Shown: one piece after another, positions 14,609 to 18,231 of the stretch
Numbering within the stretch: position 1 is the stretch's first letter
Layout of the letters: the number at the start of each line of letters is the position of its first letter
Assembly: GCA_013359215.1 (NCBI GenBank)
Contig: JABWCH010000064.1
Span: 1-33,819 of the forward strand
Origin: Candidatus Brocadiia bacterium
GTDB lineage: Bacteria; Planctomycetota; Uabimicrobiia; Uabimicrobiales; JABWCH01
Reading direction: 5' to 3'
Length of the DNA stretch: 33,819 bases
Position numbers and translations under genes: made by a program
Notes under the pieces: generated by a model
What the model was told of the DNA's origin: nothing
The model's input: the letters and a program-made list of their open reading frames with translations, nothing else
The model's database searches: none

Positions 14609-15352
14609 CTATAAGGGTTTTTGTTCTGGTCCAAGGTTTTCTATGAATTTCATTCTTACTTCCTGGATGCTATTATCGAGGTTTTCCTCTGTCCAGGATG
14701 TAGTATCAATAGGATCGAGAACCTGGATACGAACTTCAAAGGGGGCTAAATGGATAAGCCCATGCTTGGGCCATTTTTTATGAGTGTTGTGCATAACAAC
14801 AGGAACAATAGGCAGTCTGGTGGCAAGTGCGATGTGGGCAAAGCCTTTTTTAAAAGGTTGCAGGCGGCCATCCTGGCTTCTTGTCCCTTCTGCCCAAATC
14901 CACACACCTAAAGAATTTTTTTTAACATATTCTGCATTTTTATTCAAAGAAGATATAGCTTTCTCTTTATTTTTCCTATCTATAAGAAGATGCCCTGAGA
15001 GAAAGTATGCCCATCCCAAAAAAGGAATCCAGGCCACCTCTTTTTTGGCAATGGATACAACTTCGATAGGCGCAAGAAACATGCTAAGAACGACATCCAA
15101 TGCAGAAGCATGGTTCAAAACATAGATAGCAGGAAAAAATTTTTGGATTCTTTCCGTTGGATTTCCCAAAACATAGATACGAAAAATTTTTATAAGCACA
15201 GCACCTAGAATATGAATCACATAAGTAGAAAATCGAATGCGTAAAACCCGATAGGGCAACAAAAACAAATTACCAAGAAACATAACACTGCACAAAACCA
15301 TAAAAACAAGACAAGCTGAAAAATATCGAAAGATTTTATCCAGAACTTTCAT
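14609..15352 (-). CDS. plsC: 1-acyl-sn-glycerol-3-phosphate acyltransferase (PlsC family)
   Basis: This enzyme acylates lysophosphatidic acid to phosphatidic acid at the inner membrane. The 247-residue form starts at the ATG at 15352, which overlaps the preceding stop (TGATG) and has GGGGAGGAA about 9 bases upstream. An in-frame start at 15442 would run 90 bases into the neighbouring gene and is rejected. An N-terminal hydrophobic segment (11-33) anchors it. The family motifs are NHASALD (H81, D86), then AEGTRS (E155-R158) with the following GRLQPFKKGFAHIAL, and LPIVPVVMHNT (180-190). It sits between the GuaB1-like gene and selB in one transcription unit. It could be a related lysophospholipid acyltransferase. 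Confidence 0.93.
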   Translation of the reverse strand: MKVLDKIFRYFSACLVFMVLCSVMFLGNLFLLPYRVLRIRFSTYVIHILGAVLIKIFRIYVLGNPTERIQKFFPAIYVLNHASALDVVLSMFLAPIEVVSIAKKEVAWIPFLGWAYFLSGHLLIDRKNKEKAISSLNKNAEYVKKNSLGVWIWAEGTRSQDGRLQPFKKGFAHIALATRLPIVPVVMHNTHKKWPKHGLIHLAPFEVRIQVLDPIDTTSWTEENLDNSIQEVRMKFIENLGPEQKPL

Positions 15353-18231
15353 CAAACTGTTCCTCCCCAAATCTCTTGTGACTGATGAGATTTTTCCTGA
15401 GAATGTTTTTTTTCCTGGAAGGCATGAGGCGATCCTTCCCAATACCCTGATGGACTTTGGAGTCCAATGATAGCCTTTTTCTGGTATTCAGATAAACTGC
15501 CTGCATTGGAATAGGTGCAGGCAGATCTTAGCCCATTAACAAGACGGACAATAACATGAATTACAGAAGTATCTATTTTAGCAATGGATTGCTCTGCTTC
15601 CTCTGATATATTTAAATCTTCCATTACATATTCTGTCCCTTGAACCATTTTTTTTACTATTTTCGACCTTTTTTCTCGACTAGAAAAGCCAGGCATATTT
15701 TGTATAGAGCTTTCATAAGTAGATCGCAGCATATTGCGCAGTCCAATGGCACTCGCACCCATAAGCAAAGACAAATGGGCATCTCTGGGTTCTGTTATAG
15801 AATTGTAATCTTCAGAAAAAATGGTTTTACCACTTTCCATAGCTGCTCTGCTACATTCATGGATAGCTTCTATATGAGGAACTCGTATCCATCTTGATCC
15901 AACCTTGGCAACATCAGCTCCTGTTGCAAAAATATCTTTTGCACCCTGGTATGTATTGATCCCCGATGCCACTAAATTGGTTTTGATCTTGGATCTCAGC
16001 AAATCAAGACAACGCAAATAGCTTACAGAGTAGCCATTAGGAGTTTCCAGAAGTATGGCATCTGCGCCCATCCTTTCAAGAACCAGGGCTTCTTCCAATA
16101 TTTTCTGCTCTTGGCCTTGCTCAAAATCTAAAGAGACACCGACTCTTAACCGATTTTGTGCGTCAACATTAGGAATAAGTCCATATTCTATTCTCAGGGT
16201 AATATCGCGCGGAGTGATGCAACCAAGAAGCTTTCCATTGGAATCCACAACAGGCAGGTGGTGTATGCCTTTTTGCAGCATCAGCTCGCTTGCCTTTTTG
16301 AGATCAGTTCCTTCTTGTACTGTAAGCAATTTGCTTTTAAGAACGTCTTCCAGGGTATCAGTGCGTGGACGATCAAACAAATCATCAGGAGTCGCAATTC
16401 CAATAGGAGTCCAATCATCATGGAAATCCTTGACGATGATGACACAAGAAAAAGCATTTTCTTTCAGGAAGTCAATGGTTTTTCCAATTTCTTCATTGCG
16501 TTCTTGTATAGACGGGAAAAAATAGTGGGGATGGCTTGCTTTTACTTTTTGGACTCTTGTAATTAGTCTTTCTATTGGCTCGTTTCTTTTTTTTCTGCTT
16601 AAAAACCCCATGCCGCCTAACTGTGCCATAATAGTGCAAATTTTTTTCTGCACAAAATCCCCTGGGAGGGCAATATAAGGCAGATGCAAGGAAAGAGAAC
16701 CAGAAAGGCTTGTCTCGAGTTTTACAAACTTTCTGCTTGGGATATAGGATGGCTGAGGCTTTATATAAAGATCGCTAAATTCCAGTTGAGAAAGATGCTC
16801 TATGTGGCTACAGAAATCTTTTCTTAATCGCAGGATTCCATCCCTTTTAGACTGAAATTGTAGAATATTTTTGGAATTGCATTGGAGCAGGCAATGCTTC
16901 AGCCCTTCCATCATCTGGAATACTTTATGGGTTATAGACCCTGTTACTTTGACAATCCCATCAGCTCCCTCAGAGTGTTCTAACTCCTCCATGATATATT
17001 TATCGCCATAAATTTCTTTGCGCCGATAGGTTGCAGCAGAAGAAGAAGCGTTCCCTCTCCATCTTTTCCAGATTTCGCCGTTTAAAATTTCCGTTTCAAA
17101 AGCACTTTCATAAGTCCCTGCAAAAGCAGAGCCTATCATAACACAAGGCGCACCGAGAAGCAGTGCCACAGCAATATCAAAATGATTTTTGATTCCACCA
17201 TCGGCTAAAATATACTGCTTTCCAGGAACGCATGCCCGCATAGCGTCAGCAACAGCCGTTGCCTGGGGAACACCTACTCCTGTCTCTCGGCGGGTTGTGC
17301 AAGCACCGCCAGGACCAATTCCTACTTTTACTGTATCACAACCTGCATCAATCAATCTTTTTGCACCTTCATAATCTGCGACATTCCCGACAATCAAGGG
17401 AAAATCGTCTCCAATTGCTTTGCGAATTCGCGCTGTTAGCTCCACAAAATTATTTAGATAGCCATTGGCAATATCCAAAACCAAAACATCCGCACCTTTT
17501 TGGATGTAAAATTGTGCTAAGTCTTCAGGTGCAATGCCCGCTTTTGGCTTCATTCCCATAGCTACACCAATCAAAAGACGATTGTTTTTATCGAGGGCAG
17601 GCTTGTAGTTGTTCATCTTCAGGGTTATATCCATAGGCGTAACGCAGCCCAACAGCTTGCCTTCATTATCCACAACAGGCAAGTGGTTGATCTGGTTGTT
17701 TATCATGATCTGGCTCATCTCTTCTAAAGGGATACCCTCTTTGACAACCAGAGGTTTTTTTTTCATTACATTTTTGATTTGTTCCCATCCTGGTATCTTC
17801 ATCAAATCTTTTTGAGTAATAATGCCAATAGGAAAAGAATTATCGCTTACAATGACACAATCAAAATGCCTTTTGGTTACAAGCAAAAGTGCATCAGCAA
17901 CAAGGTGGTCTGGAGAAAGGACAATGGGCATGTGGAAAAAGGGATTTGCATTTTTAACCCGTTGAATCCTTTTTACAATATCTTCAATGCTGAAATCTTG
18001 GCTTAGAATGCCTATCCCTCCCAACTGGGCAAGCTTTTCTGCCATTCTGCCACCCAAATGCCCCATGTTCGCACCAACGATAGGAATATTCAAAAAAACA
18101 TTTTTCGCCAGAGGTGTCCGCAAATCGACTTCTTCAATAACGACATTTTGGTGTACCTCTGGCATAAGAATATAATCAGGATATGTATATGCTGCCTTTG
18201 TGATAATAGGCATACCCCATACATTTTTCAT
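15352..18231 (-). CDS. Tandem IMP dehydrogenase / GMP reductase (GuaB1-like) double protein
   Basis: This 959-residue protein is twice the family's usual ~480. Half 1 (1-475) is a TIM barrel with an inserted CBS pair (about 105-205). It has LDIANGY (D253), the loop GPGGACTTRRETGVG with catalytic Cys311, LADGGI (343-347), GSAFAGTYES (367-376) and HSEGADG (419-425). Half 2 (about 480-959) repeats the layout, including a second CBS pair with HHLPVVDSNGKLLG, ETPNGY and STYESS. However, the catalytic loop is replaced by KVGSRWIRVPH (776-786), with no Cys and about a dozen residues missing, and DGG becomes EDYN. Both halves recall actinobacterial GuaB1, a CBS-containing GMP reductase. The start is an ATG with AGAAAGG 7 bases upstream. 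Half 1 is probably an NADPH-GMP reductase or an IMPDH; half 2 looks regulatory or structural. Confidence 0.9.
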   Translation of the reverse strand: MKNVWGMPIITKAAYTYPDYILMPEVHQNVVIEEVDLRTPLAKNVFLNIPIVGANMGHLGGRMAEKLAQLGGIGILSQDFSIEDIVKRIQRVKNANPFFHMPIVLSPDHLVADALLLVTKRHFDCVIVSDNSFPIGIITQKDLMKIPGWEQIKNVMKKKPLVVKEGIPLEEMSQIMINNQINHLPVVDNEGKLLGCVTPMDITLKMNNYKPALDKNNRLLIGVAMGMKPKAGIAPEDLAQFYIQKGADVLVLDIANGYLNNFVELTARIRKAIGDDFPLIVGNVADYEGAKRLIDAGCDTVKVGIGPGGACTTRRETGVGVPQATAVADAMRACVPGKQYILADGGIKNHFDIAVALLLGAPCVMIGSAFAGTYESAFETEILNGEIWKRWRGNASSSAATYRRKEIYGDKYIMEELEHSEGADGIVKVTGSITHKVFQMMEGLKHCLLQCNSKNILQFQSKRDGILRLRKDFCSHIEHLSQLEFSDLYIKPQPSYIPSRKFVKLETSLSGSLSLHLPYIALPGDFVQKKICTIMAQLGGMGFLSRKKRNEPIERLITRVQKVKASHPHYFFPSIQERNEEIGKTIDFLKENAFSCVIIVKDFHDDWTPIGIATPDDLFDRPRTDTLEDVLKSKLLTVQEGTDLKKASELMLQKGIHHLPVVDSNGKLLGCITPRDITLRIEYGLIPNVDAQNRLRVGVSLDFEQGQEQKILEEALVLERMGADAILLETPNGYSVSYLRCLDLLRSKIKTNLVASGINTYQGAKDIFATGADVAKVGSRWIRVPHIEAIHECSRAAMESGKTIFSEDYNSITEPRDAHLSLLMGASAIGLRNMLRSTYESSIQNMPGFSSREKRSKIVKKMVQGTEYVMEDLNISEEAEQSIAKIDTSVIHVIVRLVNGLRSACTYSNAGSLSEYQKKAIIGLQSPSGYWEGSPHAFQEKKHSQEKSHQSQEIWGGTV

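What the first reader, a model, noticed from the sequence alone, without database searches (positions are those of the whole stretch)
15352..18231. Double GuaB1-like protein whose second half has lost the catalytic loop
One ORF holds two complete copies of the IMPDH/GMP reductase-plus-CBS layout. Half 1 keeps the catalytic loop (GPGGACTTRRETGVG, Cys311); half 2 has KVGSRWIRVPH at 776-786 and lacks the Cys and about a dozen loop residues, while its CBS pair and barrel strands remain close to half 1. This is the pattern of duplication followed by conversion of one copy into a regulatory pseudoenzyme with four CBS motifs. I know single GuaB1-type CBS GMP reductases (actinobacteria) but not a head-to-tail pair.
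Basis: partly seen in the sequence, partly recalled or inferred. Interest (0 to 1): 0.75.

Follow-up and report, generated by a model that had tools for sequence, protein, structure and literature searches.

The report
Double GMP reductase with dead half
In a few uncultured bacteria two copies of a purine-balancing enzyme are joined in one protein, where the first copy keeps the active-site loop and the second has lost it, and the dead copy likely helps to build and regulate the live one, which would turn GMP back into IMP.

Summary
Confirmed and extended. The ORF at 15352-18231 (-, 959 aa) holds two IMPDH/GMPR barrels, each with a CBS pair. It is no artefact: eight further distinct doubles (seven database proteins, one named contig) are 58-83% identical. 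In nine of nine, half 1 keeps the Cys loop, DGG and GS phosphate motifs; in nine of nine, half 2 has lost all three. In IMPDH that tail builds the K+ site against the Cys loop of the neighbouring subunit, so loop and tail now lie on different halves. Conservation splits likewise: Cys loop and flap in half 1; CBS pair, last helix and tail in half 2. In three of three double-bearing genomes searched it is the only confident IMPDH/GMPR gene, GMP synthase was not found and PurA was; the flap lacks the IMPDH water-activating Arg. Best reading: a salvage GMP reductase (GMP to IMP), probably an alternating live/dead pseudo-tetramer with two CBS pairs per active site. Chemistry and ring geometry are inferred. 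By curated cut-offs it is neither GuaB1 nor IMPDH.

The parts
15352..18231 (-). whole double gene, 959 aa plus stop
   Evidence: nine distinct doubles: window, P0001-P0007 and L040; G003 carries P0004
16840..18231 (-). half 1 (residues 1-464): live IMPDH/GMPR-type barrel with inserted CBS pair
   Evidence: Pfam PF00478 286 bits; AF2 model of the whole chain pLDDT 86, pTM 0.84
17614..17928 (-). CBS pair of half 1 (102-206), Asp142 and Asp201
   Evidence: Asp of both motifs in 9 of 9 doubles (strings printed); 61.5% mean identity among doubles
17263..17328 (-). catalytic Cys loop of half 1 (302-323, Cys311, Thr313)
   Evidence: 9 of 9 doubles; 98.8% mean identity over residues 304-322
16936..17079 (-). 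flap of half 1 (385-432) with Glu421; Ile407 stands where IMPDH has its water-activating Arg
15355..16839 (-). half 2 (residues 465-959): dead barrel with inserted CBS pair
   Evidence: Pfam PF00478 108 bits (half cut at residue 465/466); motif loss 9 of 9
16186..16527 (-). CBS pair of half 2 (569-682), Asp617 and Asp676; best conserved of the compared stretches over 60 residues
   Evidence: 70.5% mean identity, 50 of 114 columns invariant
15874..15906 (-). remnant of the Cys loop in half 2 (776-786, KVGSRWIRVPH), 11 residues shorter, no Cys
15727..15744 (-). lost phosphate motif in half 2: GLRNML (830-835), in the register of the GS motif of half 1
15418..15462 (-). C-terminal tail kept only by half 2 (924-938, LQSPSGYWEGSPHAF), register of the IMPDH K+-site tail
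   Evidence: 9 of 9 in half 2, absent from the C-terminus of half 1 in 9 of 9; 77.6% mean identity

Best explanation
The 959-residue protein carries two IMPDH/GMP-reductase-plus-CBS halves in one chain, the first with an intact Cys loop and the second without it, and it likely works as a GMP reductase whose dead second half would supply the C-terminal tail that completes the live half's active site. Shown: the loop, DGG and GS motifs are kept in half 1 and lost in half 2, and the tail is lost in half 1 and kept in half 2, in nine of nine doubles. Inferred: two chains form a four-barrel ring of alternating live and dead halves, so each of the two working sites faces a tail of half 2 at the K+ site; each working site is read by two CBS pairs (four nucleotide sites), probably sensing the ATP/GTP balance as in T. 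brucei GMP reductase; the reaction is NADPH + GMP to IMP + ammonia, feeding PurA in cells in which no GMP synthase or separate IMPDH was found.
For: Reciprocal loss, 9 of 9 doubles, against 119 of 120 listed single-copy relatives with both loop and tail, the exception being a truncated record. Reciprocal constraint among the doubles: Cys loop 98.8% and flap 83.4% in half 1 against 28.9% for the flap of half 2; CBS pair 70.5%, last helix 69.1%, tail 77.6% in half 2 against 61.5% (CBS) and 48.1% (last helix) in half 1. In IMPDH the K+ ion is held by three carbonyls of the Cys loop and three of the C-terminal part of the ADJACENT subunit (PMC4594927, passages; PMC4701174, passages). Half 1 keeps Cys311, Thr313 and Glu421 (invariant), the Cys/Thr/Glu set needed by GMPR (PMC2525682, passages); the Arg418 position is Ile407, and no RY pair is in the last 90 residues of 9 of 9 halves 1, while 109 of 120 singles have one in the flap stretch. 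Sole confident family gene in G000, G003 and G392; GMP synthase C-domain found in 0 of 6 (G000-G005) and not in G392, while 11 of 11 comparators have it; PurA found in G000 and G003 and G392. Both Asp of each CBS pair kept, 9 of 9. AF2 of the double: pLDDT 86, pTM 0.84, which suggests a confident placement of the two halves. Best TM-scores by target length among the 50 listed PDB rows are to M. smegmatis GMP reductase (0.84-0.87).
Against: By bit score half 1 alone is nearer the IMPDH model (TIGR01302, 324) than the GuaB1 models (290.7, 266.8, 261.1); its best PDB sequence matches are IMPDHs, and by Foldseek E-value the first five rows are IMPDHs. One search does not tell which half the GMP reductase rows align to. 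If the flap is shifted by four residues, Lys411-Tyr412 could stand in for Arg-Tyr. No coordinates or pairwise errors were returned, so contact between the tail of half 2 and the Cys loop of half 1 was not measured; in one of 50 structural rows (4mz8_B) the alignment of an IMPDH chain to half 1 ran on to model residue 941, which might instead mean that the tail of half 2 takes the place of half 1's own tail. The genomes are incomplete (84.7% and 59%; G392 not told), so absences are soft; weak further PF00478 hits exist, two of them over the cut-off on their own (27.9 bits in G000, 27.6 in a 33-aa frame of G392). G392 has purH, in two pieces, so it may make IMP de novo. Half 2 folded alone gave a poor model (pLDDT 61.5, pTM 0.56), which may reflect the alignment only.
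Confidence: 0.5

Rival explanations
1. A GMP reductase, but half 2 is only a regulatory and structural pseudo-subunit (CBS carrier and ring filler); its tail is kept for its own fold and gives half 1 nothing.
For: Half 2's CBS pair is the best conserved of the compared stretches over 60 residues, 50 of 114 columns invariant. All four CBS Asp are kept. Human and bovine GMPR are not activated by K+ (PMC4701174, passages), so a K+-site tail need not matter.
Against: It does not explain why the tail was lost from the half that has the Cys loop and is 77.6% conserved in the half that lacks it, 9 of 9.
Confidence: 0.25
2. Half 1 is the organism's IMP dehydrogenase (IMP to XMP) with an altered flap.
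For: TIGR01302 is the best NCBIfam model for half 1 (324 bits); the best PDB sequence matches are IMPDHs; it is the only confident family gene in the three genomes.
Against: No GMP synthase was found to use XMP in G000, G003 or G392. The Arg of the flap dyad, whose loss slows hydrolysis 1000-fold in IMPDH (PMC2525682, passages), is Ile407, and no RY pair is present in 9 of 9. The curated IMPDH cut-off (481.5) is missed by half 1 and by the whole chain.
Confidence: 0.15
3. Half 2 is decaying: a fused duplicate on its way to loss, without a function of its own.
For: Active-site motifs and flap are gone or drifting; half 2 sits on a long stem in the tree (1.59).
Against: Full length kept in all 9 doubles, with 57.2% mean pairwise identity over 36 pairs; CBS pair and tail better conserved than many parts of half 1.
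Confidence: 0.05

Closest known systems
GuaB1-type CBS GMP reductase (M. smegmatis GMPR, PDB 7OY9/7R50; NF052358, TIGR01303)
   Same: Barrel plus CBS pair, Cys loop, EG in the flap, no RY pair in the flap, and a C-terminal GxQSxxGxxEGxP signature (alignment), here kept by half 2. Best TM-scores by target length among the listed PDB rows.
   Different: One chain holds two copies, one of them dead; the Cys loop and the tail signature sit on different halves. All curated cut-offs are missed. The halves form a clade apart from the GuaB1 rows.
Single-copy proteins P0017-P0020 (one named by a source as a Myxococcales MAG IMP dehydrogenase)
   Same: Nearest single-copy relatives of half 1 found: 46.2% mean identity to half 1 and 35.5% to half 2; GGACTTR loop, RGNAS flap and EGxPHAF tail all on one chain.
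   Different: Not fused; no dead copy; function untested. P0017 scores best with a GuaB1 model (398.5 against 326.6 bits for IMPDH), below cut-off.
T. brucei GMP reductase with CBS domain (PDB 6JIG, 6LK4)
   Same: GMPR chemistry with a CBS pair; K+ activation and GTP/ATP control are shown for it (PMC4701174 and PMC7160140, passages).
   Different: Single barrel per chain; tetramers and octamers of identical chains.
IMP dehydrogenase (GuaB)
   Same: Same fold, Cys loop, CBS insertion and K+-site tail (PMC4594927, passages).
   Different: RY flap pair absent; no GMP synthase partner found; double chain with one dead half.

Membership tests
GuaB1 CBS GMP reductase (NF052358 / TIGR01303 / NF005869) | Curated model score (675 / 562.75 / 549 bits) | tested here: not met
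   Half 1: 266.8 / 261.1 / 290.7; half 2: 150.7 / 141.5 / 168.1; whole: 412 / 397.2 / 453.1
GuaB1 CBS GMP reductase (NF052358 / TIGR01303 / NF005869) | Catalytic Cys loop, Thr and flap Glu plus CBS pair on one chain | tested here: met
   Half 1: Cys loop 9 of 9; SEG in the nine flaps printed and Thr313, Glu421 invariant in the 8 rows (the 'flap EG' pattern counted is too loose to count as a test); CBS pair
GuaB1 CBS GMP reductase (NF052358 / TIGR01303 / NF005869) | Groups with GuaB1 rows in a tree | tested here: not met
   Halves plus P0017-P0020 form a separate clade, 99/99; the three GuaB1 rows group at 100/99. The GuaB1 rows may be the nearest neighbours, with weak support (86/60)
GuaB1 CBS GMP reductase (NF052358 / TIGR01303 / NF005869) | NADPH-dependent GMP to IMP activity | not testable with these tools
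   Indirect only: GMP synthase not found and PurA found in 3 of 3 genomes with the double
IMP dehydrogenase (TIGR01302) | Curated score 481.5 bits | tested here: not met
   324 (half 1), 123.1 (half 2), 442.1 (whole)
IMP dehydrogenase (TIGR01302) | Arg-Tyr pair of the mobile flap | tested here: not met
   Ile407-Tyr408 in register with 1zfj; RY absent 9 of 9. Register is gap-sensitive: Lys411-Tyr412 lies four residues on
IMP dehydrogenase (TIGR01302) | GMP synthase in the same genome to use XMP | tested here: not met
   PF00958 not found in G000, G003, G392; genomes incomplete
Pseudoenzyme (dead paralogue or domain) for half 2 | Nucleophile and substrate-phosphate motifs lost, fold kept | tested here: met
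   Cys loop, DGG and GS each 0 of 9; half 2 is predicted at mostly high pLDDT inside the double, though poorly alone
IMPDH-type ring with K+ site between neighbours | C-terminal tail of one subunit against the Cys loop of the next | tested here: inconclusive
   Both elements present, on opposite halves; geometry not measurable without coordinates

The most novel reading that the evidence does not exclude
The double is a purpose-built alternating enzyme in which a dead half supplies the missing active-site wall and a second CBS pair, and in these guaA-less, guaB-less cells it also runs backwards, aminating IMP directly to GMP with ammonia: a guanylate route without XMP.
Probability: 0.05. Interest if true: 0.85.

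Novelty: new variant of a known kind. Interest (0 to 1): 0.57.

Why it matters
IMPDH and GMP reductase are known as rings of identical subunits, and in IMPDH the K+ site beside the active site needs a neighbour. Here the two sides of that interface appear to have been shared out between two fused copies, the catalytic loop on one and the tail that faces it on the other, and both losses are present in every double seen. If right, it is a natural experiment that makes two questions directly testable: how much of the neighbour the IMPDH/GMPR active site really needs, and how many CBS sensors one site can be read by. It also marks a lineage, Planctomycetota by the name on G003's record, in which GMP synthase was not found in any of the six genomes of the order that were searched.

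Tried and rejected
Assembly or frameshift artefact: rejected, nine distinct doubles. Other long hits: P0012, P0013 and P0015 (864-1023 aa) match over 31-47% of the query; P0015 was read and has one copy, the other two were judged by coverage and listed domains only. First name search with the single protein gave no relative; repeated with alignment A1, it gave two named contigs. Sister relation of half 1 and half 2: unresolved; the free tree puts half 2 next to P0017-P0020 with weak support (84/48; 40 in a quick tree without the short GMPR) and the AU test does not reject a joint clade. Folding half 2 alone: low confidence, so no fold search was run with it; the structural rows cover almost only half 1, so they say little about half 2. 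Operon clues: neighbours (PhoU, acyltransferase, SelB) have no purine role that I recall, and the L040 neighbours (CheB-like, DnaK, malate dehydrogenase, read from the ORFs by eye) differ. Literature: searches (18 of 18 listed; 15 of 15; 5 of 5; 9 of 9; 5 of 5; 12 of 45 listed) showed no title or abstract start that describes a double IMPDH/GMPR; subscription papers are mostly not held, and PMC9790621 (GuaB1 as GMPR) was not held, so it is known to me here only from its title in a reference list.

Caveats on counts: searches scored only about 8000 candidates each, those sharing most words, so nine doubles is a lower bound. The regex for the tail also matched half 1 in one of nine doubles; by reading, that is EGIP at residues 165-168 of the window's protein, in the CBS region, not the C-terminus. 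The 120 singles are the listed best 120 of 2271 hits to half 1. The tree used 44 rows: 10 of the 116 listed hits other than P0017-P0020 and 2 of the 8 single-copy hits, picked by hand; five IMPDHs of the phylum, two PRK07107-type, two GuaB1-like, one short GMPR, P0017-P0020 and all 18 halves. A row named impdh_P0072 proved to be GuaB1, which is why 'impdh' shows two changes. Not all forks recur in both halves (P0004 with P0006 is 98/96 in half 1, 53/81 in half 2). Comparators were 11 genomes chosen by me (six of the window's phylum, five around G392).
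Full report
Observation. The ORF at 15352-18231 (-) encodes 959 aa. Residues 1-464 and 465-959 are two IMPDH/GMPR barrels, each with an inserted CBS pair, 30% identical to each other (Pfam). The stated landmarks are right: Cys311, and KVGSRWIRVPH at 776-786, 11 residues shorter than the loop of half 1.

It is real and conserved. A search of about 5.8 billion proteins gave 16 hits, of which 7 cover 98-99% of the double at 58-83% identity by local alignment (P0001-P0007; a lower bound, since only 8000 candidates were scored). 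One of them, P0004, is the protein of G003, a genome of the same family as the window's, held under the name Planctomycetota bacterium DeMMO2_28 (L039; same coordinates). A ninth double of 947 aa lies on a 69-kb contig named Candidatus Cloacimonetes bacterium 4572_55 (L040). It is rare: 2 of 392 genomes searched in the window's phylum and 1 of 116 genomes around G392, the genome of L040.

Half 2 is dead, and in more than one way. In 9 of 9 doubles half 2 lacks the Cys loop, the DGG motif and the GS motif; half 1 has all three in 9 of 9. Half 2 reads GLRNML or similar in the register of the GS motif.

The mirror-image loss. IMPDH structures aligned to half 2 carry a C-terminal tail ending in ESHPHD or like; half 2 aligns through it with YWEGSPHAF, while the matches of half 1 stop before it (alignment). 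The tail is in 9 of 9 halves 2 and missing from the C-terminus of 9 of 9 halves 1, whereas 119 of 120 listed single-copy relatives have both loop and tail. In IMPDH this tail and the Cys loop of the ADJACENT subunit together hold the K+ ion (PMC4594927, passages; PMC4701174, passages). The loop that half 2 lost is thus the one that would have faced the tail that half 1 lost. In a ring of alternating halves (inferred) each Cys loop of half 1 would still face a tail, and the two elements left without a partner are exactly the two that have gone.

Conservation agrees. Mean pairwise identity among the nine doubles: half 1 Cys loop 98.8%, flap 83.4%, CBS pair 61.5%, last helix 48.1%; half 2 flap 28.9%, CBS pair 70.5% (50 of 114 columns invariant), last helix 69.1%, tail 77.6%. 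Overall identity is 65.8% (half 1) and 57.2% (half 2) over 36 pairs. Half 2 is under constraint, but not for catalysis.

Which reaction? Residues: Cys311, Thr313 and Glu421 are kept; these correspond to the Cys/Thr/Glu that GMPR needs, while IMPDH in addition uses a flap Arg whose loss slows hydrolysis 1000-fold (PMC2525682, passages). In register with S. pyogenes IMPDH that Arg is Ile407, and no RY pair occurs in the flap of 9 of 9 halves 1, while 109 of 120 singles have one in that stretch. The M. smegmatis GMPR flap lacks it too (alignment). Pathway: the double is the only confident IMPDH/GMPR gene in G000, G003 and G392; the further hits there are weak, at most 27.9 bits. The GMP synthase C-domain was found in 0 of 6 genomes of the window's order, including G005, held as a single 9.5-Mb contig, and not in G392, but in 11 of 11 comparators. 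PurA was found in G000, G003, G004 and G005 and in G392; G001 and G002, in which no family gene was found, also gave no PurA. PurH was found in 0 of 6 and in G392 in two pieces. A cell without GMP synthase gains nothing from XMP that I know of, but can turn salvaged GMP into IMP and, through PurA, into AMP. Against this: by HMM score half 1 alone leans to IMPDH, and the genomes are incomplete (84.7% and 59%; G392 not told).

Origin. A 44-row tree puts half 1 (100/100), half 2 (100/100) and the single-copy proteins P0017-P0020 (100/100) in one clade (99/99), beside the GuaB1 rows and apart from IMPDH. Some groupings recur in both halves (window with P0001; L040 with P0005 and P0007), as expected if the halves were joined once and inherited together; others do not (P0004 with P0006). 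Whether half 1 and half 2 are each other's nearest relatives is not settled (AU p = 0.362).

Verdict. A new architecture within a known superfamily. It works like a CBS-controlled GMP reductase in the best reading, but is not filed as GuaB1 or IMPDH, since the curated cut-offs and, for IMPDH, the flap Arg were tested and not met.

Noticed in passing
window 19672-27531 (-): 2619-aa protein with TPR blocks at both ends and MG2, bait-region and A2M domains: a very long bacterial alpha-2-macroglobulin-like protein.
   Followed up: no
window 56-1105 (-): DisA-like diadenylate cyclase (DAC and DisA-linker domains). Some CBS proteins bind c-di-AMP (a CbpB model hits half 1 below its cut-off), so a link to the double is conceivable but untested.
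   Followed up: no
window 12689-14599 (-): SelB-like selenocysteine elongation factor, suggesting that this genome may use selenocysteine.
   Followed up: no
window 14609-15442 (-): Acyltransferase ORF whose listed TTG start overlaps the end of the double by 91 bases; the true start is probably further in.
   Followed up: no
G000-G005: GMP synthase and PurH were found in 0 of 6 searched genomes of the order, and PurA was not found in the two that also gave no IMPDH/GMPR gene: probably a purine-salvage lineage.
   Followed up: partly
L029 1228-2853: G005, of the same order, carries a single-copy GuaB1-like protein of 541 aa instead of the double.
   Followed up: partly
G392 C4:27442-28280: PurH match split into two frames in the genome that holds L040; not examined further.
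   Followed up: no
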